Shown here piece after piece: positions 13,905 through 35,554 of a stretch of 64,000 bases of DNA. The stretch is from Daphnia pulex. Taxonomy: Eukaryota; Arthropoda; Branchiopoda; Diplostraca; Daphniidae. Under the pieces are notes generated by a model. The model did no database searches, was not told where the DNA came from, and worked only from the letters and a program-made list of their open reading frames with translations. The position numbers and the translations under genes were made by a program. How positions within the stretch are numbered: position 1 is the first letter of the stretch; each line of letters begins with the position of its first letter. The stretch covers positions 124,001-188,000 of the forward strand of contig NC_060017.1 in assembly GCF_021134715.1 (NCBI RefSeq), given 5' to 3'.

Positions 13905-14180
13905 ATTTATGAATACCTCCACGTGAAATCCATAATCTTCTTCATAGAAATCCTCGTCGGACGGATGAAGAGGCAGAGGAGGAGGACGAAGACGAACTGG
14001 ACGACGAAGACGAACTGGACGACGAAGACGAACTGGACGACGAAAACGAACTGGACAACGAAGACGAACTGGACGACGAAGACGAACTGGACAAGGACTA
14101 CGAAGACAATGAAGCAATCTCTCCACAAGGAGCTTTGGAACCTATTAACTGGAAGTTGTTCGACTCTTCGAATCCTAGCT
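13905..14180 (+). pseudogene. Acidic-repeat exon remnant, not recognised
   Basis: The plus-strand frame reads DEEAEEEDEDELDD, then further DELDDE units, then DYEDNEAISPQGALEPINWK and a stop. It has no start codon in frame and no clear acceptor. A shorter diverged copy lies at 16090-16330, which suggests both are pieces of a duplicated gene. The function is unknown. Confidence 0.4.
13981..14098. repeat. 18 bp acidic minisatellite
   Basis: About six tandem copies of the unit GACGAAGACGAACTGGAC with a few changes, coding DEDELD on the plus strand. Confidence 0.85.
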
Positions 14181-14758: not shown

Positions 14759-15795
14759 CTAGAAACGAAGGGAAAGTCGTTCTACATTGAATGGAATTCC
14801 ATGCAGGATTGCAGGACAAAGGCAACAAAGAGGAAACACAACATTGACCAGTGATTTAAAATATGGGTGATGAGCAATGCATCTGCTCTTTAAGACATTC
14901 AGGACTGTGTCGCCGTTTCCATCTGCAATGTGAAGATTACTGCCTGTTTTTAGCAGAAACTTGAATAAATGGACTTCTTCAACCAAACAAGTGTATTGCA
15001 TTTGGGCCAAAATGTGAAGCGGGGTTCGGCAGTCCTCGTCGATGGCGTTGGGATCAGCTCTAAGTTTAAGGATCAGCTTAATGTCCTTGTAACTTGTAAA
15101 GAATTGTTTGAAGCCAGTCATCATTCTATTCTGAGCAGCTGCGTGTACAACGGTGTTCGTGCGTCCTGGAAACAAGTCTCTAATATAATTTGAGTAATAT
15201 TTTTTCAACTGCTCCTTCTCCTGACTGTTCAACCAGGGGGAAATGGACTGCAAAATAATCACGAAAGACAACACCAATTCCGCTAAGTTATCACACTCCT
15301 TGCGAAAATCCTTCTGGTCGATCGGAGACATCATTGCTGGTTCTGGCAAAAACTTTGCGATGGTTCCGATGAATTTTGTGGGCTGGAATAAATTAGCATA
15401 GGAGAGTTCTTCTCTGTCTGTAATCCTGCAGATCGGGTAGCACGCTGATGAAGAAGCTTTACATGTTGGGAAGAGTGCACTGGAAAAAATTAAATTATTG
15501 ATGGGAAAACATTTGTTGGTTGAACTCCGTCGTTAGTTCTAGGATTAGCAAGTGTTGATGAAAGTTGCACTATTGCCTGTGTTACTTTCATCCAAGTCAT
15601 AACCGAAATGAAGCACATTTTTGAGATAAAGCCAATGGGGATGTTCAAGGTTCATCTGGCTGGCAATTAAGAGTGGCTCTTTAAATGCGATACCACCACG
15701 CCACTACAGTTATATATATTATTTATCAGTTTTAGTAGAGCAGTTTTTTACCTTGTTCATTGATGAGAAATCGCTTATAATCACACATTTGTAAG
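14759..15795 (-). CDS. FEM-1-like ankyrin-repeat protein, partly decayed
   Basis: The main minus-strand exon 15479-14759 (acceptor TTTTTTCCAG) encodes CYPICRITDREELSY, a helical region, then ankyrin units (TVVHAAAQNR; ADPNAIDEDCRTPLHILAQM; GSNLHIADGNGDTVLNVLKS) and a tail in the FEM-1 style (FPLCCLCPAILHGIPF) to a stop at 14759. FEM-1 proteins are substrate receptors of CUL2 ubiquitin ligases. Upstream, 15791-15755 reads MCDYKRFLINEQ with a GTAAAA donor and may be the first exon. The piece between (about 15718-15570, IASQMNLEHPHWLYLKNVLH) is open but runs into several stops before the next acceptor, so the middle is damaged or the splicing is not resolved. Ankyrin assignment is firm; FEM-1 is likely. 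Confidence 0.55.
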
Positions 15796-17689: not shown

Positions 17690-18200
17690 GATCACGCTTT
17701 ATCTGAAGGTCCACTTACCTTTCCTATGATGGATTGGTCTTATTATGTCAGAAATTTCCCAAAAGAACTGTGTTTTAATGATTTATTGTGTGGTAAAGGT
17801 GCAGATGAAACTGACAATTCACAACAAGTAGCAAACACTATACGACAATGCGTAAAAATTGGAGCGAAAACAGAAAAATTAGAGCAGTTTTCATGAAAAG
17901 TAACGGAACATTTTCCTTATATTTCCCATTGTCCATACAAAAGGGATTTATCTATAAGTAAAAAAGCAGTTGCAAATATCTCATTGTGCAATTATTCATG
18001 TTCTCCCTTTCCAAATTGTATGAAGGAAATATCAAATTGATTTGGTTATCAAAGGAACTTTTGATTTGGATTATACCGCACCAAAAGATTTTCAATCAAT
18101 GAAAGCGCCACGTTATTAAGAAGAGGTATGGGATGACACAACAGACCCAGTCCAGTGTTTTTTTTGTGGATATGGTATGAAGAACTATTCCATAATTATG
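17690..18200 (+). pseudogene. Possible decayed BIR/IAP-like region
   Basis: A weak call. A frame at 17684-17896 is unassigned. It is followed by EHFPYISHCPYK, which resembles the end of a BIR domain (H-x-x-x-F-P-x-C-P), and near 18140 by DTTDPVQCFFCGYGMKNY, which resembles the CxxC part of the BIR zinc site. Stops and frame changes separate the two. IAP proteins bind caspases or act as ubiquitin ligases. The similarity is short and could be chance. Confidence 0.25.
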
Positions 18201-18217
18201 GTTCAATAGAGCAATAG

Positions 18218-18313
18218 AGTCCGGATTTTTAGAGTCCTTTTCCGGATTACGATCCGAAAAGTACCTCCACCAGAAAGGGGGAATTTCGGTCCGCTTGAGT
18301 AGGAGATCGCTTG
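18218..18313. mobile_element. Solo end of the first-type TTAA element
   Basis: It matches the last about 95 bases of the palindromic element at 7337-8303 (TCCGGATTACGATCCGAAAA to GGAGATCGCTTG) and ends at TTAA (18314-18317). A 12-base insertion (AGAAAGGGGGAA) distinguishes it. The rest of the element is missing. Confidence 0.8.
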
Positions 18314-18317
18314 TTAA

Positions 18318-18785
18318 ATGGTTTAATTGTCGATTCCAAATAAGCTAATGATAAAATATTCAAATTTTCATTCATGGAAAACAATTCCCTTTCCCTTCTT
18401 GAAGTAAATCCTCTCGGATTTATCACATTAATTATTGCTTTTAAATCTGCGAAAAATGTATATTTTTCTTTTCCATTCAGCACTAAAAACTTATTTAGCC
18501 AAATACCTGAAATCAAAACACAAATTCAACATCATCAATTGTAGTAAGTAGTGCTGCTCAAGTGCTTATGGTGAATTCGTTGTATGTTTTCCTAACGTTT
18601 AGAACTTTCTTGTTTTCCAAATTGGAATTTTGAGATTAGAATCGAAACAAATTCCTAATTTTAACCATTCCATATTTAGTTTACTAAATAGTTGTCTAGC
18701 TTCTTCATTATTTCCCGAAATAAGATTTCTTTCTTAAATATAACTTCTTTCACATAAAAGGAAAGCATGGATTTGCTTGTTAAAA
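18318..18785. other. AT-rich, no gene supported
   Basis: Nothing recognised beyond short chance frames. Confidence 0.3.
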
Positions 18786-19240
18786 ACCAGAATTTTCACA
18801 TATCGTTAGCAGAATTACAGAATAAAAAATAACCTGATGTTGAATAAATGCAGTAATTTTGTCCATGAGGAACTTTCGATTGAAGCAGCTCATTATTTTG
18901 AATCAGCTGCAGTGCCAAGATAGGAGAGTGAGCTGTGTGAACAAAGATCTTGAAAAACAACTTCACATACCGTAAATATAATAACAGAATCAAAATTCAC
19001 CTGATAGTGATTTTGTCCATAGGGAACTTTTGACGAAGGAAGCTCATCCTGAATTAGCTTTTGTCCCTAGATCGGAAAGTTAGCTGTGTTAACAAAATTC
19101 TTCAAGTGTTTGTGGTGTGCTTGCCCATAGGGGACTTTGTCCGAGGGCACTACAACTGAAGATAAATAAGTTAATATTGGATGTGCTGAGAACCCAGTTG
19201 AGAGAACCCAAAGTGGGTTTACTGTTTTTGTGTAAATGCC
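18786..19240 (-). pseudogene. Duplicated unrecognised exon pieces
   Basis: The minus strand carries related segments: HTAHSPILALQLIQNNELL then SKVPHGQNYC near 18930-18830; NTANFPI (stop) GQKLIQDELPSSKVPYGQNH near 19085-19000 with a GTGAAT donor; and DKVPYGQAHHKH near 19140. The repeated core SKVPxGQN shows tandem duplication of one exon of a gene I cannot name. The stop in the second copy indicates decay. Confidence 0.4.
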
Positions 19241-19282
19241 GTGCGGAAATTTCGTCATTTATGCAGATATATTTTATTTTTT

Positions 19283-19390
19283 AGGGAAATTGATAAAATA
19301 AATTGTGAAGACAGATCGCTTACGTTCAAATGCTTTCATGGTCGTGGGCGTCAAAGATTTGATTTGCTTGACTACGATATTGTCAAGCAA
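19283..19390 (+). pseudogene. SNF2-family ATPase fragment, copy 2
   Basis: One exon-sized piece: EIDKINCEDRSLTFKCFHG then RQRFDLLDYDIVKQ. The copy at 20373-20492 has the same exon ending in the expected LTTYQ before its donor. Here homology stops just before that point and sequence resembling a CDK9 intron begins. Confidence 0.65.
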
Positions 19391-19550
19391 GGGACAAAAG
19401 ACATTTCTAAGTCATATAAGAAAAAAACATTTGTTACCAATAAATATTAGCACTCAACCCCCTTTCTCATTTTTATAAGCACTTTATTAGAGCTAATTTT
19501 TTTCGAGCTTTTAACACTTCCCCAAAGGTACCCTAGGTCCTATTATACGG
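19391..19550 (-). pseudogene. CDK9 fragment (intron plus part of exon 1)
   Basis: This matches 46435-46595 of the intact CDK9 gene: GACATTTC, the intron block AACATTT(T/G)GTTACCAA, the splice-site region TAGCACTCA, and exon 1 sequence through CTTTAAACACTTCCCCAAAGG (here CTTTTAACACTTCCCCAAAGG). Intron sequence is included, so it is a genomic copy and not a retrocopy. It is joined directly to the SNF2 fragment. Confidence 0.75.
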
Positions 19551-19699
19551 TATACTAAATCAAAAAACAAGATTAGGCCGGGTGATTCGTTGGTGTCAAA
19601 CTATAGCTAGAACACGCCTCAGTACAGAGAGTTGACGCAACAATGAAAAAAAAAATTCTTATAGTTTTTACAGATCAGCCATAATCATTCTACACTCGA

Positions 19700-20108
19700 A
19701 ACATACGATGTTGTCGATCTTAAGAATGGAACGGATGGTTTTCGAAGCCAAAGTGATCGCAATGGTGGTCAATAGAACAGGCTGTACAGCTCCTTCGTCC
19801 AGCATGTTAGTATTAGCATCTTAAATAACATAAACATTTAACATCTTTCAAGCATTTAAATGGAAAAGAATCATTATTCCATAATACCATGTGACCTTCA
19901 ATACCAGATGACTTGAACCCGCAGGCGTCTTTGTTCCTCAAATCAGTCACGGTTGTGATAGGGATAAGATCTGCGTTTTTGGCCAACGTCATAGGAATCA
20001 CTTCCAGACAGAACATCCTGAAGAGATCACGCAGCCTCTTCTAAGACACGATTGTTGCTACCTCGGACGATGACCGGTATTGTTTTGGCAACACGATAGA
20101 ATACCCAT
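19700..20108 (-). pseudogene. CCT4 (chaperonin delta subunit) pseudogene fragment
   Basis: On the minus strand: [19 protein letters not shown], then TGA (an Arg in CCT4) and SLQDV; then in another frame [18 protein letters not shown] and [12 protein letters not shown]; then after non-coding sequence MLDEGAVQPVLLTTIAITLA and KTIRSILKIDNIV. These are the apical/intermediate/equatorial motifs of the CCT delta subunit in order (V-RGSN, LEVIP-TLAENAGL-PI, TVTELR, RSILKIDD). A part between SLQDV and CLEVIP is deleted. CCT is the cytosolic chaperonin for actin and tubulin. Stops, frame changes and deletion make it a pseudogene. Confidence 0.8.
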
Positions 20109-20372
20109 AATCTTTCCAATTAAACAACAAGTCCTAAAAAAATGAAATTGCGAGTTATGTATTATCTCACCAACTCACAATTAACCCAAAGTGGATGTAC
20201 TGTTTTCGTGTTTAAAAAATGAAGCAAAGATGTGTAAGGGACGTAAGACGGCCCATAAGCTGTAACCAGTGGCAACAAGCCATGGCCACCGGCGCCTACT
20301 TTATCAAACTCAAACTTTTTTTTTTGTTTATGCCGAGGAGGAATTTCGTCATTAATATTGATATAATTTATT

Positions 20373-21043
20373 TTTCAGGGAAATTTATGAAAGAATTTGT
20401 GAATACAAATCGCTTACAGTCAAATGCTTACATGGTCGGGGGCGTCAAAGATTTGATTTGCTTAACCACGATATTGTATTAACAACATACCAGGTAATAA
20501 TGTTGTAATGTGAGTTTATTTCTTTTCGGATTATTTTTTTTAAGAAGAAGCTACTAGGGCTAGACAGCCTAGACTATCCAACTTGTTTCAGGCAAAATTT
20601 TCTCGCATTATCATAGATGATGCAAAGAAGATCATGGATCCTAACTTGAAGATTTCAGAAGATTTCTGCATGCTTCGTGGTGACCAGCGTTGGACAATTA
20701 CTGCCACACAAGTTCCGGATTCATATTTGTTTTCTTACTTCCGTTTTATGCAATCTGCCCCTTTGAACGACGTGGCGATACTTCTATTTCAAATTTTAAA
20801 TGCATTTTACCCACAGATTTGATCATTAGTTCAATTTTTTCAGATGTGGAATTATTGGGTAGACGACGCGGATGGGGATAGACTTTGGACGGCTCTTCAC
20901 GAAAATCTTGTAATACGTTGGGGTCCAATTCGTACCGACCATTTAGATCCACTTGGTCGTCCTCCTCGGAGTTCCAACAAGGATGACTGTCAAGTCGAAT
21001 ATTTTGATTTTCATATAGAGGCACTTGTAAATGAATTAGTTTG
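20373..21043 (+). pseudogene. SNF2-family ATPase pseudogene, copy 3
   Basis: Plus-strand exons: 20379-20492 (acceptor TTTTTCAG; EIYERICEYKSLTVKCLHG, then RQRFDLLNHDIVLTTYQ and donor GTAATA); 20592-20810 (acceptor TTTCAG; AKFSRIIIDDAKKIMDPN, where motif II should read DE[AS]H, then MLRGDQRWTITATQ for the usual RWxLTGTP, then LFSYFRFMQSAPLNDV); 20843-21043 (acceptor TTTTTTCAG; MWNYWVDDADGDRLWTAL, VEYFDFHIEALVNELV, stop). It is better preserved than copy 1, and its splice sites are good, but motif II and the TGTP motif are changed and the C-terminal helicase lobe is absent. Confidence 0.7.
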
Positions 21044-22095
21044 ATCAACGCTGATAAACGAAATGGACACCATTCCTACAAATATTGCCGAGCCTCTTTT
21101 ATCCCATGAGAGATGGATTCTGAGGTTTTTTTTTTACCTCAGTTTAAATAATTTCTATGTTAATTTTATGTTTCGATTAACAAATGGCATTTCCTTCTTA
21201 AACTCAAAATTTCATTGGTGTTAGTCTAAAATTTCCCAAAACAGAGCTAGGTGCAATAGCACTACCAAAATTTAGAAGTAACACCAGTTATCACTTATTA
21301 CTACTATCAGGGCCATCATAGCTTGGCCCTGCAGTGATCCCGATATAGTATACGATATCTACTATCTTAAAAAATTTGAGGAGTATTAATAAAAGAAAAT
21401 TGCATCATTGACTTGAAATCTAATTCCCCCTAGCTGATTTTAAGCGTTTTATGTTATCTTCTTGAATTTCAACAAAAAACAGCAGGTTCCGGTGTGACGG
21501 CAGGTCCTCCTTGTTGTTTGTGTATTTTTGCGTGGGTGTTTGTGTGAAGTCTGCCTCACGATTGAACAAAAAAGTAAAATTATGCGGAGGGATGGGAGAT
21601 TTTGAAGACACAGTTGCTGATTATGTTTCCAATGATGATGGCTGTCCCTCTGATATTGCATGGCTTGATTTTGCTTGGGATATGCTGGATTGGCTAGAGA
21701 AATTTATCTTAGGTAATGTTTAAATTATTTGTGCTATTAATGATTTTCTAATTATTGTGTTTTTTTCGTTTTTTTCAGGCAATCTTAAATAAGACCCTTC
21801 AGAAGCTTTTTAAGAGAATCTTTACCAATTTTATGCAGGAAATTGATCAAAATTACGATGGAAAAGTTAGGGGAAGGTCGCAAGCTCATTCGTTCAGACA
21901 CTGAATGTTAAACACCTCGATTACTTCTTTCGTTTTCGTTCTTAACTGAAAAACTGATCCATGTTCTCTCTTCCCCTTCCATGCTTCCCTCCTTTCGTCG
22001 TCTGCCTCTTGGCCGTTGCCAGATTTTACCCTTTATTTTTACCTTTGACGCCGGTGCGCCACAGTCCCGGCCAGCGCCAGCGATGGCACGGTTGT
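21044..22095. other. No gene supported
   Basis: Includes a plus-strand frame at 21511-21723 followed by GTAATG, then TTTCAG at 21779; this could be two exons, but the peptide (DFEDTVADYVSNDDGCP) is unknown to me. Confidence 0.3.
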
Positions 22096-22310
22096 CATAA
22101 GCTTGGTCTGCGGATGGTCTGATTCATGGTTAAATTAGGTGTGTCGACAACCGGGCCCAGGAAGGCGGTTCTTGCTTTAGCCATCAAAGAAATTCGATCG
22201 AATAAGGCAAACACTTGCGAAAGCTGTTGACGAATCGGATACACACCACCCTCTGGCCAGTTTACGCGATATTCTTCCAGACCTGGACGTATTTTTTTAT
22301 CATGTAAGAA
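22096..22310 (-). CDS. Unrecognised open exon
   Basis: A minus-strand frame of about 70 residues with amino acid use like real coding sequence: WSRFLHDKKIRPGLEEYRV, then NWPEGGVYPIRQQLSQVFAL, then SLMAKARTAFLGPVVDTPN, to a stop at 22096. There is no start codon and I could not find its neighbours with confidence. RPGL followed by W is seen near the stem of dynein heavy chains, but this is too little to name it. Confidence 0.35.
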
Positions 22311-23139
22311 TCGAGACCAGATGAGGGTTCACCACAAAACAGCACTAAGGGATAAAAGGCAGCAGCAGTGAAACTGTCAAAACGGAGGCCGTCAAAATGG
22401 TCCACTCGCAAACAAATTTTGTCGCAATGGACTCACTCGTCAGTGAATTAAGAATTCTTATTCATCTCGCATTCAAATGTAGCAACCTTGGGGCTGGCAG
22501 CGTGCAGTAAAAGATTAGCAAAGGCAAACCATCAAAATATATTCCATGTCCAACAAGAAATGAATTTCCTTTACAGGTCGGCTTTTGATAATTTTCGAGT
22601 GTAGCCTATACTATCGATATGGTAACCAACAAACGTATCTGTCAAAACATCGAAACAGCTTCATTAGTCTGCTGGACAATAGCAGATGGTGTGTCGCGGA
22701 TCTATGAGAAAAAGGGGTCAGTAATCAAGCGAGACTCAGGACCGAATGTTTATGTTAGGTTTTGAAAAGTTGTCAACGTGAATTCTGCAAAACCAAAACG
22801 TTTGGCCAGTCATTTTTAACATCTTTAGCGTGGCAGAAGCCACATGGTATTGACAACTTTTCAAAATTTAACGAAATAAAAATTTAAAAAAAGTTTCAAT
22901 GTTATTAAATTAGTACACCACCAGTTTTTTTAAAAGACATAAAACCTAACCTGCACTTTCTGTGAGCGACATATGGACCTGCATTTTACCCACCAACCGC
23001 ACGCCGCACCCTGCACTCCAGACTCCGCACTTTACCCCCCGTCCAACCTGCACCTGCACCCTGCACTTTACCGACACCCCATGTTAAACCGTCATTCTGT
23101 CTAATAATTTCAACAATACTAAAGTTAAATTCAACACAG
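22311..23139. other. Spacer; C-rich low-complexity run near 22980-23085
   Basis: CCTGCACCCTGCACTT-type imperfect repeats occur before WASH1. No first WASH1 exon was found here, although TTCAACACAG at 23130-23139 could serve as an acceptor. Confidence 0.4.
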
Positions 23140-25337
23140 ATGGCGTCCGCAGATAATTTGGAGTTTCTGGATCGGATATCTGGTGATATTTTTTCCGAAG
23201 TTGCACAACGAATCCAGGAAAGCCGAACGGAAATCAGCAACATTCACAAGAGAGTTGAAGTTGCACAGTCCAAGCTTGATGGACTCAAGGGCAGCCGCAA
23301 GGTCACCAAGATATTTTCAAGTTCAATTCAAGTTGATGCAGAATCTATTGTGGATGGAGACATGGTTTTCTATCCCACACATCAACAAAATGGAGCAAGA
23401 CGTAAAACACCTGCTCTTCCGAGTTCTGTGTCAAAACTGGGTCTTTTGATTTTCGACACCTGTGATTTTCGAACCCCCCAGAGACAGTCAAATTCAGATA
23501 AATCTTCTAAATCAACTCTGCGTCGTAAACACGATTCCGAAATCTCTACCGACACTTCAATCGGAGAAGCCGATACTTTGCCGTATCAAGATCATTCTGA
23601 TTGTCCTTGGTCCATCAGTAGTCAAAGAGATCAACTAGAACGAAGCAATCCTCTCAATTTTTCCTACATGCCCGGTAAATTTTAAACGTTACATTAACTG
23701 AATTTTTTAGAAAATTATCTTTAATACCTTTACAGGACTGGGAGACATTCCGGAATTGGATCTTCCTTTGGCCCTTCCAGACTTGCCAGGTGTTGCGGAT
23801 AATTTGGCCTACAACGAAGACATTGGCCCAGTTGGTTCAGAATCTATTGTGGATGGAGACATGGTTTTCTATCCCACACATCAACAAAATGGAGCAAGAC
23901 GTAAAACACCTGCTCTTCCGAGTTCTGTGTCAAAACTGGGTCTTTTGATTTTCGACACCTTTGATTTTCGAACCCCCCAGAGACAGTCAAATTCAGATAA
24001 ATCTTCTAAATCAACTCTGCGTCGTAAACACGATTCCGAAATCTCTACCGACACTTCAATCGGAGAAGCCGATACTTTGCCGTATCAAGATCATTCTGAT
24101 TGTCCTTGGTCCATCAGTAGTCAAAGAGATCAACTAGAACGAAGCAATCCTCTCAATTTTTCCTACATGCCCGGTAAATTTTAAACGTTACATTAACTGA
24201 ATTTTTTAGAAAATTATCTTTAATACCTTTACAGGACTGGGAGACATTCCGGAATTGGATCTTCCTTTGGCCCTTCCAGACTTGCCAGGTGTTGCGGATA
24301 ATTTGGCCTACAACGAAGACGTTGGCCCAGTTGGTTCAGAATCTATTGTGGATGGAGACATGGTTTTCTATCCCACACATCAACAAAATGGAGCAAGACG
24401 TAAAACACCTGCTCTTCCGAGTTCTGTGTCAAAACTGGGTCTTTTGATTTTCGACACCTGTGATTTTCGAACCCCCCAGAGACAGTCAAATTCAGATAAA
24501 ACTTCTAAATCAACTCTGCGTCGTAAACACGATTCCGAAATCTCTACCGACACTTCAATCGGAGAAGCCGATACTTTGCCGTATCAAGATCATTCTGATT
24601 GTCCTTGGTCCATCAGTAGTCAAAGAAATCAACTAGAACGAAGCAATCCTATCAATTTTTCCTACATGCCCGGTAAATTTTAAACGTTACATTAACTGAA
24701 CTTTTTAGAAAATTATCTTTAATACCTTTACAGGACTGGGAGACATTCCGAAATTGGATCTTCCTTTGGCCCTTCCAGACTTGCCAGGTGTTGCGGATGA
24801 TTTGGCCTACAACGAAGACGTTGGCCCAGCGATCGCACCTTCACTGATAGCGGCCCTTCCCGATTTATCTCAACTAACTGAAAACATCAAAACTGTTAAA
24901 CATTTCCCTGTTCCACCACCACCTCCGCCGTTCATTCCTGATCCAGCTCCGAGCACCAAGCCCAGCGCTGCGTCTCTGGATCGTTCTAACCTTTTTTCGG
25001 ACATTCGGGAAAGGGGTGGATTGAATAAACTAAAATCCTCTGCTGGTCTTAAATCTTCGGCTTCAACATCTCATCAAGCTCCGGCGGGCGACTTGAGGGC
25101 CGATCTCTTTAACCAGCTTTCCATGGGGCGAAAGGTCAGTTATCTTTTTCGAGTGTTTCGTTATTTGAAAAGGAGAATGAGTATTAAACTTTACCCGATT
25201 TGGTTGAACAGCGACTTTCTAGTGAGAATCAAGAGGTGGTTTGGTGGATGAGAGGAATTTCCGTCATGATTTCACCTCCTCCTCATTCAGCAGGCGCCAA
25301 CGTCTCCAGTTCAGATGAAGATGAAGATTGGAAATGA
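23140..25337 (+). CDS. WASHC1: WASH complex subunit 1 with internal tandem triplication
   Basis: WASH1 activates Arp2/3 on endosomes. Exons 23140-23674, 23736-24173, 24235-24672, 24734-25134 and probably 25236-25337 join with consistent phases to 637 aa. The N-terminal WAHD1 part is visible ([31 protein letters not shown]); the usual extreme N terminus with IQPDLRREE is missing, so a first exon may lie upstream or be lost (AG precedes the ATG). Then comes a 146-residue module ([14 protein letters not shown] to the conserved [16 protein letters not shown]) present three times. After the last copy are [12 protein letters not shown], a polyproline run, the WH2 segment [26 protein letters not shown] and the acidic end [10 protein letters not shown], which bind actin and Arp2/3. 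The last acceptor is the least certain. A single-module protein would be about 345 aa. Confidence 0.85.
23339..24829 (+). repeat. Three tandem 499 bp units inside WASH1
   Basis: Units 23339-23837, 23838-24336 and 24337-24829. Each holds the end of one exon, a 61 bp intron and the start of the next exon. Junctions read [11 protein letters not shown]. Units differ at only a handful of bases (for example TGT/TTT at the DTCDF position), so the event is recent. 499 minus 61 is 438, divisible by 3, so each added unit keeps the frame. Confidence 0.95.
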
Positions 25338-25479
25338 TATATATTTTTTTGTCGATTGAAATTACAAAGAAATACAATCGCGAGCCTCAGAAACAACACA
25401 CAAGAACGAATAAATAAATATAGAAAATCGCAAATTTTCAAGCTCAAATTTTCTTTCTGTCGTTTTTTTCGTCGTCGTT

Positions 25480-25827
25480 CTAAGATTGTGCTTCCGTCAA
25501 TTGAATTGTCTCAAATGGACTGCCAGATTCGCTCTAGAACATGAAAACAAATTCAGTTATTTGATTAAAGAAGGTAAAGATTGAAACTTACTTTGTAAGC
25601 GGTCATCGAACGTATTTTGTTGACTAGACCAAAGCTTTTCATAGGAACAGTCACCAATACTTCGCCCTCCTCATCTTCGTCGTCATCCAGAGCGCAGCTC
25701 TCGGCTGTCGCCAATTCCGTTTCACATTCGTTACTGCCATTGTCTTTGAGACTGGAGGTCGTATCGTTGCCACCGCTACTGTTGCTCGGTGTAGAGGAGC
25801 GCCACTTCCTCCGTGAAACTAAATCCC
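25480..25827 (-). CDS. 3' exons of an unrecognised acidic protein
   Basis: Two joined minus-strand exons: 25827-25592 (acceptor ACTTTAG, donor GTAAGT) and 25533-25480 (acceptor TTCTAG, stop TAG). They encode GDLVSRRKWRSSTPSN, a Ser/Thr-rich linker, an acidic run DDDEDEEGEVLVTVPMKSFG, LVNKIRSMTAYK and the end FETIQLTEAQS. Phases agree. Upstream exons are not visible up to the next gene's stop at 26018, so this gene may start far upstream or be truncated. It lies tail-to-tail with WASH1, with only about 140 bp between stops. No family is recognised. Confidence 0.55.
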
Positions 25828-26017
25828 CTAAAGTGATAAAAAAGTGCAAAACAAATAAGTGCATGAAAGAACGAAATTTAACCTAACAAAATCATTTTCT
25901 TAGATAAACCCCAAAAATGTATTAAAAAAACAGCAATTTCATTCAACTTCATGATCAACCACTAAAAACATTTCGTAATCACATCGCATCGCATCGCATA
26001 AGGAAGGGAAAAAAAAC

Positions 26018-26857
26018 TTAATTCCAACGGGGTTTTGCGCACTTGGGTGGAGCATATCTTGGTCCATGCATGGCACGAGCAGTGGGCTGAGGATGGGCAA
26101 CTGTTGTTGCGGTCAAAAGATTCACTCCGACAGTGGAAGGACGAACAGAAGGAGGAGGAGCAGTTAGACGAATCCTTGAACCAGTTATGGACGACCGAGG
26201 TCGAACCGAAGGCTGTGCAGCTTGAAAGATTGCAACATGTCTAACTACATCCACAACACGTGCATTAGCTGGATCAGGAGACACTAACGACAAATAAGGG
26301 CGTGGAATCACAAGGGGAATGACCAAGTAAACTAAAAACTATACCTGATCGTCCACGTCCAAGCGTAACGTGTGGAACACGAATATAATCATCCATGTCA
26401 ACCACAATATTTGCAATATTTTGGATGTCTTGTCCTTGGTGAAGGAGTTGAGTTGCTTCGTTCTCAAGGCCGATGGCGGCACGACTCTAAAACTTTGTAT
26501 GCTAAAGCTCTTAACTATACGTATAGTATCTATAAATATACCTGAATTCCTGCAAATTCTCTTTCTCTGGTATTCAATCGTTGCTCACGCACAGCCAGAT
26601 CTTCTTGAATCTGTCGAAGTCTCATTTCTTCCTCTTGAACTGTCCGACGTGCTGCCGCCAAGTTTTTTTCAAGCAATTGTTGGGATCGCCCAATGTGTTC
26701 CCGCTGCGTGTTGAGCTGTTTAAAAAAAATCGATTGCTTCTTCGTGTAGCATCTGGGAAAACACAAAAGATTAACAAATATTTATACAATATTTTAACCC
26801 AAATTATTTTAATACTTACTTGTACAATGTTTTTTTCCGGTATGAAATGCTGCCCAT
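26018..26857 (-). CDS. Coiled-coil protein of 234 residues, not recognised
   Basis: Four minus-strand exons, 26857-26820, 26752-26542, 26486-26345 and 26331-26018, all with GT-AG borders and closing phases, give 234 aa from ATG (MGSISYRKKTLYK) to TAA. Residues about 20-85 form a strong coiled coil (QLLEKNLAAARRTVQEEEMR, RLRQIQEDLAVREQRL). The middle part (DIQNIANIVVDMDDYIRV) leads to a Pro/Arg-rich basic tail (PPKCAKPRWN). No signal peptide or membrane segment is seen. It sits between the Spire exons and the acidic gene on the same strand. Complete phase agreement argues for a real gene; its function is unknown. Confidence 0.65.
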
Positions 26858-27696
26858 CTAATTCAAATAGGATAGGTTAACTGAGTATGTGTAAAAAGTA
26901 TTATACGGCTATTAAGAAGTTTTTGTATGGTATAACATTGCAAAAGATTTACACCAACACGATAATGCTAGGGAGATCATTTTAAAACCTAAAATTGAAT
27001 GCAAGTGTATCTTGATACAACTCATTAATGATATTTGTTAAAATAAGCGGGGGACCCAAATAAGCGTATTTGAATTATCTCTTTCGATGACAAAATCAGC
27101 AAGACGAAGGGTTGATTGCAAATGGATAAAAGCAAACATTTCAAAATTATAAATATGGTACCTTTGTTCATGATTTCTTGCTGTATTGAGATGAAGCCTT
27201 TCGTTTAACCCCACAAAATCATCAGTTAATTGCCTTTCAATATGCAATAAAAAAAGTGTATGGCTAATCAGTACGACAAGCAGACTACAAGCGAAATATT
27301 GTCAGGGCTGCCTCTTTTCATTACCATGTTGCCAAGTATGTCTTTACGTTACAAGATGGCATGAGAATCTTAATTTAGTCCTGTCAGCTAGCTATTCCCC
27401 CATCAGCTTCTGCATTCTGTATTTTTATTTATTATTTATTATTTCATGATCATGATCCATTTCACCACCAGCTAGCTACCCACCTCTTCGTTTATTTATT
27501 TGTTTTCGTTCGCTTGATGCTGCTGTTATTGCCATGCCCTGCGGAGAAATTTCTAAAAAAACTATTGCCCTTCTTTCTTACTTTTCTAACATTTTTTTTC
27601 CTTTTCTTTTACACCCCTCTCGTAATTTCGCGCCTTAACAAATAAAATAAAATCGATCGTTCGATCTCTCTTATTTTTTTTTTTTTTTTGACTCAC
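26858..27696. other. Spacer or intron sequence
   Basis: AT-rich, with a pyrimidine-rich part at 27480-27690 just before the Spire exon donor. No further Spire exon (other WH2 units, Spire box, FYVE-like finger) was found here. Confidence 0.4.
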
Positions 27697-30638
27697 CTGT
27701 TCGGTTGACCAGGAGGCATAGAGTGGGCCTCAATTCCTTGGAATCGTGCTGCCGGATCGACTCCATGGGCAACTCGACCGGCGTAGAAACACGACGAGCC
27801 AGCGGCCCCAGCTTCCTCTCCGACGCCGACTTCAACTTTACCCCGTTACGCAGCTGACGGATCACCTGCACCCACAATTTTGCCTGTCGTCCCAATGACA
27901 AAGAAAAAGATTAGAACTCGGAGGCAAAAGAAACAAAACGGCCGCCCACCTCCATCACTTTCAAAAAGTCTAAACTGGCCTCGTGTGTCGTGTGCGACGG
28001 TCTACGTGTCGGCCGTGATGTGTCTATTTGCGGCCAGTGACGTGACCGTTTTCCATCCTCTCGCGTTTTGTTATTCTCAATCATGACATCACCCAACACA
28101 CCGACGTTTTATTTTTTCCCAAAAAAGTAAAGTTCTTTTTTTCTCTCTTTTTCTTCTTCTCTTTGTTCGGATATACGATCGAATAAACGAGCACGTTCAT
28201 GACCGGCCATTTCCACCACCTACTCGAATTTCCCAACTTTTGGACCTGCCACGGCCGCTGGACTGTGGTCCGTCTGACTTCAGAAACGAACCTGTGTTGC
28301 CGCCGTTTGAGTCTTTTCCATTCAAAATGAACCCCACGCCGGAGATGAATCATGCGGGCGCTCGGCTCGCGCCTCATTCAAATTTCTTCATCTCGGGGAA
28401 AATAAAAAGTGCGTCATGTTCTCTCTCCCCCCATTCCAGCACCGTCGCTTTTTAGGAATCTTTTTTTTGCCGCGCTTCTGGTGATGGATGATGCGAGATG
28501 TCTTTTATTCTCTCCATCTTTTTTGATTATTTCTACGTGTGTGTGTGTGGCTCTCGTTTGGATAAAGGGGCGATAAAGAAAAGAAGGAAATCAAGAACAA
28601 AAGGCTGTGAGACTCTACGATGGCATCGGTTGGAAGATGCCCAGTGCACCTAGCCAGATGCGCGCCTTTCGACTTGTTCTAGCAGCGACTGGGGCTGCAA
28701 GCAACAAGATGGACGGCAGGGTGTTTTGTACGGCACCTGAGGACGACATTCCTCCACTTCTCGCTTATTTTTCTTTCTTCCAGGCTGTTGCCAACATCAG
28801 ACCTCCCACCCTTCCCTATTGAATATCCATTTCAATAACCATAAAAGAAGATGGCCATAAAACACCCGAAGAAAAAGCGGCCCAAAGTGAGAACAAGTTT
28901 ACGGCTTCGACTTCCAATATAGTCCACAAGGCGATTTCCCGTTTAATCTCCAATCTCCTCCAAGGAACCGACGATCGTAATTACTTTAACGGGGTAGGGG
29001 GGAGGCAACTCGACATTTTCATTGCTGGAAACGGACCTTCTATTTTTATTATTTTGTCGCTCAATTGAGAGAGAAAGAGACAGCCGCAACGACGAAACAA
29101 CAAAGAGAGAGAGAGAGGGGGCCAAAGACTCGGCCAAAGAGTCATCACGGAACAACAACAACCCAAAAAAGAATTTAAAAAAAGCACACAGAGAGTTTGT
29201 GATTTAATTTTTTGTTCGTTGGTTGGCTCATTCGTTCGAATGCGATCTCGACCCCCGCGTGACCCAACCAACTCCACCCTTTTCCGGCCATTCCGATTTT
29301 CTATTCAAAATCCCCCCCGCCGTCTCTCTCTCTCCCCTCTCTTTCTGTCTGCCTCGCGACTGTTTGATCCTACCGAGGGAAACTCGTTTTTTTTTTCTAT
29401 TCTATTCCCGGTTTATTTTCGGAAATTAACTCTGTGACATCATCAAAAACTGACACACAAGAGGACAAATAGACACAGAGGAACGGGGTTCAATGTCCCC
29501 TGGCAACGACGAGTTCCTTTTTCTCACAACACAAACATATGGGACAACGACTGGAACAACAACAACAACTACTGGCAATGATAATCATAATCATTATTAT
29601 CCTTACGATCCCCCCCCCCCTTTTTTTTTCTTCTCTGTAGAAACGTATACTGCGACTGCCACTATTTTATCTTCCTGCCCATAAGTTCCACCCACCCACC
29701 TACCCCCGGTCGCCTATAAGAGAAATCTCGGGCCCAAATCGACGACAAAGATTTCCCCTCGATTGTGACTTGTGCACACCAGCTACACATTGTACGCAGG
29801 AGAGACACACCAAGGGTACACACGTTGGTTGCGGGTTAAATGTCAACCGAATATTTTTTTTCTTATTTCTCCCCCCGTCACCTTTTTATTCGATTATTTC
29901 CCTTGAAAAAAAAGGAAAAAGAAGAAAAAAGGAAAAACTGTTTCAAAAGACTTGCACTGCAACATCGGCGAGGGTAAACCTCTGGTGCTCCGCGTGCCTT
30001 TTGGCGCTGCCAAAAGGTTAACCGCATCCACACGCTCCCGCGGCGCGCGTGAGACGCTGGCAACCTTTTATTACTTTCCATCCCTCTCTCTCTCCCCCAA
30101 TCATGTTTCTCCGTCTCTCCTTTCTTCTCCTCATTTTCCCATTTTTATTTTATTTTCTTGTTTTGTTTTGTTTGTCGGGTCTTCGATTTAAACATGTTTG
30201 TTCTGATGTACACATTCTCCTCCTCCCCCTTTTGCATCTGCGCCATCGTCGTCTTCGGCCACCAGTTTCTTAATCATCGCCAGAGTTACTTACCCAGTCG
30301 GCCAGATGGAGTTCCGTCAGCTCATGCGAATGGGTCTCGGATTTGTTGTTTCTCAGTTCCCGCCAATCCTCGGGTGCTGCCGTTCCAGAAGAGTAAAAGA
30401 AAAAAGAAGAAGATTGTAGGTCAAATAATCAAAGTGGGAGTGGAACATGAGGAGCCATGAATAAAACATGAAACGAGATAATGGGAGGAGGAGGAGGATG
30501 ATGATGGTGATGATACCTGATAAGACTTTGACGATATAGTCTGAATGCAAGAGCGTCTCGGCGACGAGTTTGCGGCAAATGGTTCCAAAAATGGAATCCG
30601 CCTGACGAAGCTGTGCTGCTGATTTGATTGCGACACCG
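27697..30638 (-). CDS. spir: Spire actin nucleator, three internal exons
   Basis: Minus-strand exons 30638-30517, 30376-30294 and 27883-27697 join in phase. They encode the end of the KIND domain (QLRQADSIFGTICRKLVAET), a linker (APEDWRELRNNK, then ELTELHLADW) and AKLWVQVIRQLRNGVKLK, which matches the Spire segment ADW-x-x-LWVxVMRDLRNGVKLK before the first WH2 motif. After this the usual LTPYExLMDDIR motif is only partly kept (TPVELPMESIRQ), so the first WH2 looks shortened. Spire has tandem WH2 motifs that line up actin monomers and works with formins. The first part of KIND and all later exons are missing here; the N-terminal KIND part found in this window is at 2282-2718, in the wrong order for one gene. 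The 2.4 kb intron is large for this genome. Confidence 0.65.
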
Positions 30639-31734
30639 CTGGGCAACATCACATGGAAAAAGAAAAAAAGACAACAAACAGACGAGCAAAAAAATAATGG
30701 TTAAAAGAAACTCAACAAAATCAAACAGACTTTTTATGTCAATCTACCGAGTCAGAATTTTCTCCGACAAGAATAGAAAAAGAAGAAACAAACATGAAAA
30801 GGTAGCCCAAATAAGTCGAGCGCAAGTCAAGTCGAATCTCCTCGGGTTGTGTAATTTTTGGGCTGCCTTTGATGCTGGACCACATCCGGATTAGAAAGAA
30901 AAAAAACAGCGGGCGGTTCTATAACCCACACTCGACAGACAGAGATGGACGAGGTCCACATCAAAAGCCAAGCTATAACGTGCGTCGACAAAGAATGCGC
31001 GAGCAGCTGCTGCTGCCACACGGCCGATCTTCTTCTTCTTCTAATGCGGCAATTTTTGGTTCTTCTTTCCTTTCCATTTTTCTATTTTTTGCCCTTAGAA
31101 AGTTGTAGAATGTAAATGACTCGGCCAGACAGCAGAGTCAGAAAGAGAAGAAGAGAGCAACGCACTTGAACCCCGAGAAACATTAACTGGCCCTGTGCTC
31201 CGTGCCATCTGGGCACCGAGGGATATAACTTTAACTAACTATCTGGTAAACTTGGCAAGGGCTTCTTCTTTCATCTTCTCTCTCTCTCTCTCTCCCGGAT
31301 GGACAATCACTATGGCGCTTTGTCTCTTTATCTACTTCACCAGACGATTAAGATTATGGGGGAGACCTGCTAATTCTTCTTTTCTTTCTTTTTTTTTTAA
31401 AAATGAGACGCACGTCGCACCTGTTACACTTTTGAACTTCACCTTCACGTCGCCCCCCTGGAGTTGCAGGCACACACTCACGCCGGAATTTTGGGCAGCC
31501 CATTTGAATTAAGCGAAACGGGAGATGAGGTGGGCAAAGATGACATCACCCACACACACGAGGATCTTGTTCCTTCTCCCCTCGGTTTGTTGTTGGTTCA
31601 TTTGAATTCTCTCGTGAGCCAAAGAAAAATGACGCCACCGCACGGATTCATTGACAAACCAAAAGGGAAAACGCGCAACGATTTTGCGCTGCCGAAAGAT
31701 GAAAAAGAAAAGTCGATTGTGGTGGTACGGTGAT
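30639..31734. other. No gene supported; pyrimidine- and purine-rich
   Basis: Likely upstream intron or 5' region of Spire. It contains (CT)n at 31278-31294 and GAA-rich runs. I looked here for the first half of the KIND domain and did not find it. Confidence 0.4.
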
Positions 31735-31965
31735 GGCTCTCCCGCGGTTAGTTGAAGAAAGTAACTACGTCTCTCATGCCCTAACGTCGTCTGGTAGTGA
31801 ATCTGAGTGGCGCCAAGAATCGACAGTAGATGGCGTTAAAGTTAACTTCAAGCCACATGCAAAATTCTGCCGTATGAGTCATTGGCTTAGCTGCCCAAAA
31901 CACGCCGCTGTCTTCGCCCTGGACCCATTTTTCGCAGTTATCGTTCACAAGATGGCCTCTTACGA

Positions 31966-32920
31966 GTGCTAGGATTGCACACAGCCAAAGTGGTTCAAAG
32001 AGGCGCTTTATTTGTTATCGACTTTGTCGTGGTAGACGAGCCTGGCCAGCCACCCCTTCTAGGACTCCCGTCTTGCGATAAGCTGAACTTGATTCGGCGA
32101 GTCGATGCTGTTCAGTTGCCAGTCGAAGCTCCGATGCCGCCAATCGTCGCGGAATTTATGGACGTCTTTACGGGAATAGGTAAATTACCTGTCGAACATG
32201 ACATTAGGCTGCTGTCAGGTGCTCATCGCGTGGATCCTGTTGTGTGTGCAGCCAGTCGACTTCCGTTCCGACTGGAGGATCACGTTTTCAAGAAGTTGGA
32301 CGAAATGGTCAACGACAAAGTCCTCACCCCCGTGCAAGAGCCAACTGAGTGGGTCAGCCGCATGATGGTGGTGGGAAAGCCGGACGGCGATGTCCGTATT
32401 TGTCTGAACCCATTTGAACTAAACAAGACCAACCAACGTAAACATTTTGCCGTCCCCACCGTTGAGCAGCTGTTCAGCAAGTTGGGTAAGGCTCGATATT
32501 TTTGCAGCCTTGATGCTGCGTCTGGTTTCTATAACATTCCTTTGTCTAATGCAGCTAATGGCCACTCCGAAAGGCCGTTATCGCTTCCTCCGGCTGCCGT
32601 TTGGGTTGAAGTCAGCCCCTGAAATTTATCTTCAGACAATGAACGACTTGTTTGGAGACCTGCCCGGTGTGCTCATCTATTTTGATGATTTCCTTGTAAC
32701 GGGTGAAACGGAGGAGGAACATCTCACCAACCTTACGTTGCCGTCTCCATTACTTGAAGCTTCAGTTAAAGAAGTGCAAGTTCTTTCTCCAGGAGCTCCC
32801 GTGGCTAGGCCATGTCATTGGCCAAGGAACTTTAAAGCCGGACCCTCTCAAAATTTCAGCAATTGTGATTCAAATCACCTGATGCCTGATCAGGTGATCA
32901 GGCATGATCACCATGCCTGA
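31966..32920 (+). pseudogene. Gypsy protease end and reverse transcriptase
   Basis: The frame at 31966-32622 starts in the protease C-terminal part (LLGLPSCDKLNLI) and enters the RT fingers and palm (KPDGDVRICLNPFELN, YFCSLDAASGFYNIPL). A frameshift near 32550-32560 moves the rest to the next frame (PKGRYRFLRLPFGLKSAPEI), which holds the catalytic YxDD box as YFDD. Coding is lost again near 32710-32900, where an inserted palindromic stretch built from TGCCTGATCA interrupts it. The protease DTG region upstream, near 31830, is damaged. RT copies element RNA; here it is broken. Confidence 0.85.
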
Positions 32921-33065
32921 TCCAACTTTTCCGGCAGATCTTGTCCGTCTCCTGGGCATGGTGACATACCTGGACAAGTTCTGCCAAAATCTCGCGGGTC
33001 TGACACGAACCTTACGTAACTTTCTCAAAGCAGACGCAGCGTGGGTGTAGGAAGAGCCCCAGAAG

Positions 33066-34685
33066 ATGGCCCTTGGTCAGCTAAAAAGTGCATTGCCATC
33101 TCTTCCAGTGCTCCGACTGTTTGACCACTCGCTGCCCTTGGTCGTGTCAGTTGATACGTCTCCCGTCGGCATCGGTGCAGTGTTGCTTCAAAATAACCAA
33201 CCGATCGCGTACTCATCAACGTCGTTAACCGAAACTCAAAAACGGTACTTTCAGATCGAAAAGAAGCTGTTGGCGGTCCAGTTTGGACTCATGCGCTTCC
33301 GGCAGTACGTCTATGGCCAAATGGTGGTGGTTGAAACCGATCACAAGCCGTTGATTGGCCTCCTGGACAATCCCATTGCTTCTTGTTCCCCGAGAATCCA
33401 GCGGATGCGTCTACAACTCCAACGATTTGATTTCAAGCTAATCTACAAGCCGGGCAAGGAGCTGTTTATCGCCGACACACTTAGGCGGGCTCCGTCGCCC
33501 CGCCTTTTTACCGATGACGTCACTCAAGACTGTGAGGAGCAGGTTCGTGCTGTTCTTGACCTGGTAATTCCTCATGATTGAACTCGTGTCAAGTTTGCTG
33601 CAGCAACGACAGCAGATCCAACTCTCCGTATCCTGAAAGAAGTCCTTCGTCGTGGATGGCCTGATCACAAGGCCCAGTGTCCGGTGTCCGTAAAACCGTT
33701 CTGGCCAGTACGCCACCACTTGTCTGAAGCTGATGGTCTGCTACTCAATGGCAGCCGGTTGGTGGTTCCGATTTCGCTTCGGCAGGAAGTGTTGGCCGGA
33801 ATCCACGACGACCATTTTGGAGAGGTGAAGTGCATCTTACGGGCAAAATCGGCCGTTTATTGGCCCGGGTGTGACGAGAAAATTTGCAACATGGTGGCCA
33901 GCTGTTCGACCTGCCAAACGCATTGCCATCGAAACCCAGTGCAGCCTCTTCGTCCAGTGCCGTTGCCGGTTCATGCCTTTCAGTGGGTGTCGGCTGACAT
34001 TTTTCTGCATGGTGGCGTTCACTACCTCCTGGTTGTTGACGCATATAGCAAGTGGCCAGCATGCGTTCCATTGCGCAGTTTATCGTCGTCGTCCGTCGTC
34101 GCCGAAATGGAACGCATATTTAGTGACTTTGGCGTTCCGGAAATCGTCATGTCAGACAATGGCTCTCAGTTTGATTGCGCCGAATTTCGAGAGTTCTGCG
34201 AGGGCCGTGCAGTTCGGTCAGTGACGTCCAGCCCAACCTACGCACAGTCCAATGGTCTGGTGGAGCGCCACATACAGACAGTGAAAAAGACGCTCCTAAA
34301 AATGTTTACGGATGGCCGGTCTCTATGGGAGGCCTTGGCGGCCATTCGGTCAACTCCAATATCGTCGGAACTGCCGTCTCCAGCAGTGTTGTTGCAGGGA
34401 CGCCACCTTCGTGACAGCTTGCCGTTTTTGCAGGATCGTCTGGTTCCACAGTTTGTACCTGCCAAGTTCGTTCACGGCCAGCTCCAGCGTCGTCAGGCTA
34501 CGGCTTGTTTTAATCACAGCGGTCGTCCGGATGTTCGTGGGTTGGCGCTCATTATCGGTCAACGTGTCCGGGCGTTCGTCTCTGGATTGTGGTTACCAGG
34601 TGCCGTCGAAGCTGTTTGCAGCGAGTCTGACTCATACGTCGTTCGGCTGGCAGACGGGCAAGCTTTTCGGTCGGACGCGCCGTGA
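33066..34685 (+). pseudogene. Gypsy RNase H and integrase, one internal stop
   Basis: RNase H (33066-33581) shows VVSVDTSPVGIGAVL, YFQIEKKLLAVQFG and VVETDHKPLIGLL. A single TGA at 33579-33581 separates it from the integrase, which continues in the same frame. The integrase has an HHCC zinc finger (HDDHFG, then CSTCQ), and the DDE core residues at SADIF, SDNGSQF and LVERHIQT, with a C-terminal domain ending in RLADGQAFRSDAP. A second stop lies upstream of 33066. Integrase joins element DNA into the host; this copy is interrupted, but the domain is nearly full length. Confidence 0.85.
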
Positions 34686-34815
34686 CATCAATCTTGACAA
34701 CTCACCATCGGTAGGATTGGCCGTCGGTCAACAGAGTGGCGGTGCTGCTGTAATCCCGTCTGCTGTTCGCGGTTATCGCCCCGCCCCGACTTATCATCTG
34801 CTGCCGGCCCTGTCT

Positions 34816-35109
34816 TAGTCTCCACTTGGTCCGCCTGCCCGCGCTGTGAATGGTCCAGTTGCCCAGCCGCTTCCGGTAGCTCTGGGTCAACCGTCAATGG
34901 TGCCACAGCCTCCGCCAGTAGTTATTAACCCGTCACCCGGCCCGGCAACCCCTGCAAGACCACGTGCGGCGCCCGTCTCAACCGAAAAGCGTGCTGCCGT
35001 CCAGCTGCCCTCTCTCCAGTCGCCCCTGACTGAGTCAAGTCCGCTGGCCGTCGCGCCGCATCGTCCGGGCTCGACTCGCTCTGGTCGCCCTTACCTCAAG
35101 CTGTGTTAA
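34816..35109 (+). pseudogene. Proline-rich tail of the gypsy polyprotein
   Basis: Open frame rich in Pro, Ala and Ser (PPPVVINPSPGPATPA) ending GSTRSGRPYLKLC. This low-complexity end is common after the integrase in arthropod gypsy elements. A TGA at 34683-34685 and a TAG at 34816-34818 region separate it from the integrase. Confidence 0.5.
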
Positions 35110-35253
35110 TTGTCTGTATGTGATTCATTGTCTGTTGTCCTGGCTGCTTTGCTAGTGACACTTTTGGCCGTTTTGCTCTACTTTCACTCAGTTTTGGGGT
35201 CGCTTATGCAATTCGTCATCTAATTCTCATTCCTTTTTTTTCTTCCTGTGTCT

Positions 35254-35396: not shown

Positions 35397-35554
35397 TGTT
35401 AGTTCTTGTCGTTCGTTTGTGTAATCAGTGTGCGAGGGTGAGATGTTGTAGAATCTAGCGCTGGCCGCTAGATGTCGTGCCACCTAGAGTGAGCATATCC
35501 CCGCTATGCAGAGCCCCAATACATCAGTCTTAGACACGCACTTGTCTTTATAAC

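What the first reader, a model, noticed from the sequence alone, without database searches (positions are those of the whole stretch)
23339..24829. Recent in-frame tandem triplication inside WASH1
Three 499 bp units, each with the same 61 bp intron, follow each other with very few base differences. The added coding length (146 codons per unit) keeps the frame, so the predicted protein has three copies of the segment that links the WAHD1 region to the conserved [12 protein letters not shown] strand, with a single VCA end. Known WASH1 proteins have one copy. This is either a new protein architecture, a copy-number polymorphism, or an assembly artefact.
Basis: partly seen in the sequence, partly recalled or inferred. 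Interest (0 to 1): 0.75.

Follow-up and report, generated by a model that had tools for sequence, protein, structure and literature searches.

The report
Tripled segment in second WASH1 copy
The threefold repeat is really in the assembled sequence, but it sits in a shortened, fast-changing spare copy of the WASH1 gene, while an ordinary full-length WASH1 with one unit lies on another chromosome, so it is more likely a gene copy in decline or in flux than a new design of WASH1.

Summary
In detail: three 499-bp units (23331-24829), 98.2-99.2% identical, each with the same 61-bp GT-AG intron and 438 in-frame coding bases. The reading "inside WASH1" needs correcting. The assembly holds a second, full-length, single-unit WASH1 (450 aa, 3 exons) on contig C7, about 232 kb from a contig end that is a TTAGG array. 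The window gene is a partial copy of that locus. It lacks the first 21 residues, a 26-residue linker and 51 residues of the polyproline stretch. It lies in a patchwork of duplicated fragments 147 kb from the start of contig C1. Against C7, dN/dS is about 0.9 (1.4 in the C-terminal part), and the coding differences between units are all nonsynonymous: little sign of purifying selection. Yet the frame is open, splice sites are intact, and coding indels net to multiples of three. The units are probably real: ten variant sites, no indels. They are young enough to be polymorphic. Skipping internal exons would give one-, two- or three-unit proteins in frame. Expression is untested. The closest parallel is the 5'-truncated subtelomeric WASH copies of primates.

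The parts
23140..23674 (+). Exon 1 of the window WASH1-like gene (C1 copy); ATG at 23140 aligns in DNA with internal Met22 of the C7 WASH1
   Evidence: open frame, codon alignment with C7; 178 codons plus 1 nt. The six-frame WAHD match starts 30 nt before this ATG, so the start is not certain
23331..23829 (+). Repeat unit 1 (499 bp)
23830..24328 (+). Repeat unit 2 (499 bp)
24329..24827 (+). Repeat unit 3 (499 bp); keeps the C7 base at the site equivalent to 23801, where units 1 and 2 share another base
23675..23735 (+). Intron in unit 1, 61 bp, GT-AG, homologous to the 63-bp intron of C7 WASH1
23736..24173 (+). Exon 2, 438 nt, symmetric phase: can be included or skipped in frame
24174..24234 (+). 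Intron in unit 2, 61 bp
24235..24672 (+). Exon 3, 438 nt, symmetric phase
24673..24733 (+). Intron in unit 3, 61 bp
24734..25134 (+). Exon 4: last [12 protein letters not shown] strand, shortened polyproline stretch, WH2-like and central motif
25135..25211 (+). Last intron, GT-AG, chosen among candidate sites by agreement with the C7 last intron (78 bp there)
25212..25337 (+). Exon 5 with acidic tail SSDEDEDWK and the single stop codon (25335-25337)
25409..25414 (+). AATAAA, 72 nt after the stop; C7 has none in the roughly 300 nt scanned after its stop
23149..25802 (.). Segment homologous to C7:12050834-12048941 (WASH1 minus its 5' end, plus the last exon of the neighbouring opposite-strand gene)
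22745..23082 (.). Dispersed repeat with a short inverted arm, copies on several contigs, just upstream of the truncated gene

Best explanation
The window gene is a second, partial copy of WASH1. A segment of about 1.9 kb (WASH1 except its 5' end, plus the last exon of the neighbour) was copied from near the telomere-bearing end of contig C7 to near the start of contig C1, next to a dispersed repeat. Later, a 499-bp stretch spanning the end of one exon, its intron and the start of the next was duplicated in tandem and raised to three units, most simply by unequal crossing over (inferred). Since the unit holds one intron and 146 codons, the two added internal exons are symmetric and the reading frame survives; skipping one or both would also stay in frame. 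The copy is changing fast and keeps WASH features only in part, so I read it as a WASH1 duplicate under relaxed constraint, perhaps transcribed, that does not replace the C7 gene. Shown: triplication in the assembly, the C7 parent-like gene, truncation, open frame, splice sites, divergence pattern. Inferred: direction and order of events, unequal crossing over, lack of complex function, expression.
For: Own-genome searches found WASH1-like sequence at two loci: the 12 protein matches (7 window locus, 5 C7) and the 6 WASH_WAHD matches (4 window locus, 2 C7) all fall there (every first-look candidate was scored, but the tool is six-frame and may miss short exons). C7 encodes 450 aa with an almost complete WASH_WAHD match (profile 2-281 of 292, 193.9 bits). 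The C1 copy lacks 21 N-terminal residues by DNA alignment, 26 linker residues, 51 of the polyproline stretch and 15 before the central motif. dN/dS against C7: 0.87-0.91 overall, 0.82 N-terminal part, 0.57-0.67 unit, 1.37 C-terminal part; codon differences between units 4, 8 and 6 by pair, all nonsynonymous. WH2 is found weakly in C7 (E 0.018, under the cut-off) and not at E 0.1 in C1. The segment's edges abut other duplicated DNA: repeat 22745-23082, a gene family from 25802, C5-like DNA from 27380. SWIP (WASH-7), CCDC53 and strumpellin models each hit one locus.
Against: The frame is open over 645 codons; four of four introns have GT-AG ends; coding indels against C7 net to multiples of three in 8 of 8 hand-grouped events, while the five 3'-flank gaps are 1-2 nt. 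This suggests that the copy was translated for much of its life. Neutral simulation gives a 4.6-21% chance of no stop, so the open frame alone proves little either way. In the unit dN/dS is 0.57-0.67, some sign of constraint there. The acidic tail with its tryptophan is kept, and an AATAAA follows the stop.
Confidence: 0.72

Rival explanations
1. The C1 gene is a working, expressed WASH1 paralogue that has gained a new architecture: three copies of the mid region (with three [12 protein letters not shown] strands) ahead of one VCA-like end, with unit number adjustable by exon skipping. It could act outside the WASH complex, or compete with the C7 protein for its partners.
For: Open 645-codon frame, splice sites intact, coding indels in frame; exon skipping gives 645-, 499-, 499- and 353-aa products without internal stops; acidic tail kept; the first 213 nt of exon 4 differ from C7 at 8 sites; dN/dS 0.57-0.67 in the unit.
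Against: dN/dS near 1 overall and no synonymous difference between units; N-terminus lost; WH2 not detected at E 0.1; no match of the C7 upstream DNA held (to C7:12063999) in window 18000-36000, so its promoter is unknown; no expression data.
Confidence: 0.19
2. The three units are an assembly error: one or two real units were repeated in the assembly.
For: No reads or coverage could be examined; young tandem repeats are classic places for such errors. The tree-like signal among units rests on one clear site and one ambiguous one.
Against: The units differ at ten sites by substitutions only, with no indel in 3 x 499 bp, homopolymers included; at 23801 unit 3 keeps the C7 base while units 1 and 2 share another; 1.5 kb is short for long reads.
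Confidence: 0.07
3. The unit number is polymorphic: the triplicated state is one allele among one-, two- and three-unit alleles in the species. (Not exclusive of the explanations above; its odds are separate.)
For: Unit divergence 0.8-1.8% is of the same order as synonymous diversity reported for Daphnia obtusa (0.012 and 0.017, PMC12926508, passage); 499-bp tandem units at 98-99% identity are good substrates for unequal crossing over.
Against: No population data.
Confidence: 0.4

Closest known systems
WASH1 (WASHC1), the Arp2/3 activator of the WASH complex; here the C7 gene
   Same: Same order of parts (WAHD region, [12 protein letters not shown] strand, polyproline, VCA-like end), same intron positions, 92 of 1017 aligned coding sites different
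   Different: C7 has one unit and the full N-terminus; C1 has three units, a truncated N-terminus and a shortened polyproline stretch
Subtelomeric WASH copies of humans and other primates (PMC10924726: passages; PMC3298513: passages and section 8)
   Same: Interchromosomal duplicates of WASH1 near chromosome ends; two (WASH4P, WASH6P) lost their 5' ends; part of a neighbouring gene travels along
   Different: Most of the nine copies in GRCh38 are said to be not full length or to carry stops or frameshifts; the C1 copy has an open frame and an internal triplication. The first 10 kb of contig C1 shows no telomere run
Stramenopile WASH with two VCA domains in tandem (PMC3298513, section 8)
   Same: A WASH protein with an internally repeated part
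   Different: There the VCA is doubled; here the part before the polyproline stretch is tripled and the VCA-like end is single

Membership tests
WASH1 (WASH complex subunit 1) | WAHD domain at the N-terminus | tested here: inconclusive
   Pfam WASH_WAHD over its cut-off (217.5 bits, 4 stretches), but the first 21 residues and a 26-residue part are absent and the match is broken up
WASH1 (WASH complex subunit 1) | One mid region between WAHD and polyproline stretch | tested here: not met
   Three units in the C1 gene; one in C7
WASH1 (WASH complex subunit 1) | C-terminal VCA: WH2, central, acidic with tryptophan | tested here: inconclusive
   Acidic tail DEDEDWK present; WH2 model finds C7 at E 0.018, under its cut-off, and not C1 at E 0.1
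WASH1 (WASH complex subunit 1) | Assembles with SWIP, strumpellin, FAM21, CCDC53 | not testable with these tools
   SWIP, CCDC53 and strumpellin models match the genome; binding cannot be tested; FAM21 was not searched
Primate-type WASH pseudogene | Stops or frameshifts in the coding region | tested here: not met
   645 codons open, splice sites intact
Primate-type WASH pseudogene | Loss of 5' coding sequence | tested here: met
   First 21 residues of C7 absent by DNA alignment (the protein alignment places the gap as 19); blastn homology with C7 starts at 23149
Primate-type WASH pseudogene | Subtelomeric location | tested here: inconclusive
   C7 gene is about 232 kb from a contig end that carries a TTAGG run of 1,169 units; C1 copy is 147 kb from the contig start, but the first 10 kb of C1 has no such run

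The most novel reading that the evidence does not exclude
The C1 gene is a young, expressed WASH1 paralogue under positive selection whose copy number of the pre-polyproline module is set both by unequal crossing over and by exon skipping, giving a family of Arp2/3-activator isoforms with one to three modules and no N-terminal complex-assembly part.
Probability: 0.1. Interest if true: 0.6.

Novelty: new variant of a known kind. Interest (0 to 1): 0.3.

Why it matters
A 2012 survey with 165 WASH sequences reports one functional WASH in almost all species and one domain layout with two exceptions (PMC3298513, section 8 and Table 1 passage). A second WASH copy in what is probably a water flea, copied between chromosomes and carrying a young triplication, would be an independent parallel to the primate subtelomeric WASH copies and a tractable case of a gene copy caught between decay and new use. 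If not expressed, it is one more gene duplicate in decline.

Tried and rejected
Rejected: that the triplicated gene is the only WASH1 of the genome. Rejected as likely: plain assembly noise. Considered: gene conversion from C7 as the source of the low 3'-flank divergence (17 of 462 aligned sites, against 92 of 1017 coding sites; Fisher p 0.00015). Synonymous sites exceed the flank as well (p 0.003) and the excess comes from clumps of differences (27 windows of 60 sites, variance/mean 3.9; 0 of 100000 multinomial draws reached it), so I do not claim positive selection; the clumps are unexplained. Considered: capture of the segment by a mobile element; both sides abut duplicated DNA, but no element with transposition features was identified there. 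Led nowhere: Rfam over 18000-30000 (0 matches); a bacterial promoter/terminator scan (5 found against 6.3 expected, and 0 against 3.1; not suited to this genome); solved-structure search of the C7 protein (one weak match, N-WASP, E 0.0058, through the proline-rich/VCA part). Paper searches: Daphnia with WASH complex (1 paper, listing only, unrelated); Daphnia pulex with segmental duplication and intragenic (1 paper, listing only); WASH1/internal duplication/tandem/Daphnia/paralog (386 papers hold at least 3 of 5 terms, 15 listed, none of the 15 with WASH1); Daphnia pulex duplication-rate terms (74 papers, 12 listed, none opened); WASH complex with strumpellin, WAHD1, tubulin, VCA (0 papers). 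No structure was predicted: too few relatives for an alignment. None of the viral, metagenome, bacterial genome, phage, plasmid or E. coli collections was searched, as they hold no animal genomes by their descriptions.

The codon alignment behind dN/dS is a MAFFT alignment of C7 and three single-unit C1 versions; gap columns were left out. The eight-event indel list was grouped by hand: the raw DNA alignment has pieces of 10, 7, 59 and 13 nt that cancel within the same short regions, and the 6-nt item at the start lies beside the truncation. The 27 window counts were copied by hand. In one search the window protein also had three chance-like Pfam matches under their cut-offs (crAss_MUZ_C, Kunitz_legume, CUB).

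Full report
Tandem Repeats Finder reports 23331-24829, period 499, 3.0 copies, 98% matches and no indels, and a second repeat finder gives a 300-nt stretch in three copies at spacing 499 and 499. The units differ from one another at 4 (units 1-2), 9 (1-3) and 7 (2-3) of 499 positions, with no indel in register. Each has a 61-bp intron from GT to AG. Each unit adds 438 coding nucleotides, or 146 codons. The whole model has five exons (23140-23674, 23736-24173, 24235-24672, 24734-25134, 25212-25337) and reads 645 amino acids to one stop. The last intron was chosen among candidate sites by agreement with C7. The [12 protein letters not shown] strand is inside the unit and so occurs three times, a small correction to the finding.

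The window lies in an assembly of 133,188,837 bases in 13 contigs, as C1:124001-188000. The size agrees with the 133.2 Mb given for Daphnia pulex (PMC12926508, passages, which also names its KAP4 assembly), and one contig end carries the TTAGG repeat (that TTAGG is the usual arthropod type is recalled). I take it to be Daphnia pulex or a close relative; this is inference, no record names it.

The main correction is that this gene is not the only WASH1. A DNA search with exon 1 gave 5 matches: 3 in the window and 2 on contig C7. A protein search gave 12 matches, 7 in the window locus and 5 on C7. The Pfam model WASH_WAHD gave 6 matches, 4 in the window locus and 2 on C7. The C7 gene (C7:12050900-12049407, minus strand) has three exons and encodes 450 amino acids with a nearly complete WASH_WAHD match (profile 2-281 of 292). 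It has one unit. Other subunits of the complex are in the genome, each model hitting one locus: SWIP (2 matches, C10), CCDC53 (2, C9) and strumpellin (10, C1 at 7.25 Mb). FAM21 was not searched.

The window gene is a partial copy of the C7 locus. Homology runs from window 23149 to 25802 against C7:12050834-12048941 and includes the last exon of the neighbouring gene on the other strand. The 5' end of WASH1 is missing: in the DNA alignment the window ATG falls on Met22 of the C7 protein. The six-frame WAHD match begins 30 nt before this ATG, so an upstream start or exon is not excluded. Also missing against C7 are 26 residues after the FSSS motif, 51 residues of the polyproline stretch and 15 before the central motif, while 14 residues in three places are present only in C1. 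Which of these are losses or gains on which branch cannot be said without an outgroup. Upstream of the copy is a dispersed repeat (22745-23082), downstream a fragment of a gene family found on C6 and elsewhere on C1, starting exactly at 25802, and from 27380 DNA like contig C5. The locus is thus a patchwork of duplicated pieces 147 kb from the start of contig C1. The C7 gene is about 232 kb from the end of C7, whose last 10 kb holds a run of 1,169 TTAGG units; the first 10 kb of C1 holds no such run, so C1 is near a contig end but not shown to be near a telomere.

Order of events. With C7 as outgroup, unit 3 keeps the C7 base at the site equivalent to 23801, where units 1 and 2 share a change. 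The intron site 23703 points the same way if the run of T is aligned by eye, but the MAFFT alignment reads it as a change in unit 3. Unit 3 carries four further private changes (23503, 23629, 23653, 23753 equivalents). The simplest tree is units 1 and 2 as sisters, resting on one or two sites. Units 2 and 3 keep GGTTCAGAATC as in C7, whereas unit 1 reads GATGCAGAATC, as if three bases had been lost there. Taking 7 differences in 499 and the published Daphnia pulex rates of 2.30e-9 to 4.53e-9 per site and generation (PMC12926508, passage), the older split is about 1.5 to 3 million generations old by my own arithmetic. The 3' flank differs from C7 at 17 of 462 aligned sites, under the silent divergence of 0.134 between D. 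pulex and D. obtusa given in the same paper; silent divergence of the coding part (0.10) is also under it. So the copy itself is probably younger than that species split, unless gene conversion has reset it.

Is it working? Against purifying selection: dN/dS with C7 is 0.87-0.91 overall, 0.82 in the N-terminal part, 0.57-0.67 in the unit and 1.37 in the C-terminal part, and codon differences between units (4, 8 and 6 by pair) are nonsynonymous without exception. The latter is weak, since 7 of 7 would come about with probability 0.15 without selection. The WH2 model finds C7 at E 0.018, under its cut-off, and does not find the window protein at E 0.1. For coding use: the frame is open, four of four introns have GT-AG ends, the acidic tail with tryptophan is kept, an AATAAA lies 72 nt after the stop, and coding indels against C7 net to multiples of three in 8 of 8 hand-grouped events, whereas the five flank gaps are of 1-2 nt. 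A neutral simulation from the C7 sequence kept the frame free of stops in 21%, 9.8% and 4.6% of runs with 46, 69 and 92 substitutions, so the open frame alone is weak evidence. Differences are strongly clumped, which raises the coding divergence above the flank; I leave the cause open.

Mechanism, as far as supported: a segment copy between chromosomes (shown by homology; direction C7 to C1 inferred from the truncation and the partial neighbour gene), then tandem duplication and a rise to three units, most simply by unequal crossing over (inferred). Because exons 2 and 3 are both 438 nt and in the same phase, leaving out either or both gives 499-, 499- or 353-residue proteins without internal stops. 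If the gene is expressed at all, unit number could therefore vary by splicing and by allele. Loss of the N-terminus should weaken assembly into the WASH complex (inference; the complex's make-up is from PMC8047104, passages; binding was not tested).

Against the literature: a survey of WASP-family proteins (PMC3298513, section 8 read, passages) states that almost all species analysed have one functional WASH, that mammals and especially primates carry WASH pseudogenes in subtelomeric regions, and that the domain layout is uniform but for Trypanosoma and Stramenopiles. Its main text does not mention Daphnia (0 occurrences). [quoted passage not shown] The window gene resembles the truncated human copies in origin and differs in its open frame and its triplication. 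My searches of the open-access library showed no paper on a Daphnia WASH copy (one search listed 15 of 386).

Verdict: the repeat is in the assembly and very probably real, but it sits in a truncated second copy of WASH1 with little sign of constraint. It is more likely a gene duplicate in flux than a new architecture of WASH1. Interest 0.3.

Noticed in passing
window 25450-25840, minus strand: The last exon of the C7 neighbour gene (a transmembrane protein by eye; name not tested) reads on in frame into new sequence at the 25802 breakpoint; could be a chimeric gene.
   Followed up: partly
window 25802-27379 and 27380-30774: Patchwork of duplicated DNA: first part 73-98% like pieces of C6:677672-681686 and C1:425313-428278, second part 89-94% like C5:6082688-6086500, with sharp edges.
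   Followed up: partly
window 23140-23199, 24444-24506, 24960-25019, 25201-25260: Differences between C1 and C7 WASH are strongly clumped, far above chance; cause unknown.
   Followed up: partly
window 33684-34682: ORF with integrase zinc-binding and integrase core domains; the neighbouring ORF 31966-32619 looks like a retroelement part by eye but gave no Pfam match.
   Followed up: partly
window 3709-4504: Long array of 42-bp and related repeats (TRF).
   Followed up: no
window 60045-60139 and 13981-14092: Two 18-bp repeat arrays, 5.3 and 6.2 copies; the first lies in a 726-aa ORF without a Pfam match at E 0.001.
   Followed up: no
window 54318-54752 and 14762-15349, minus strand: ORFs with a glycerophosphodiester phosphodiesterase domain and with ankyrin repeats, ordinary gene pieces.
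   Followed up: no
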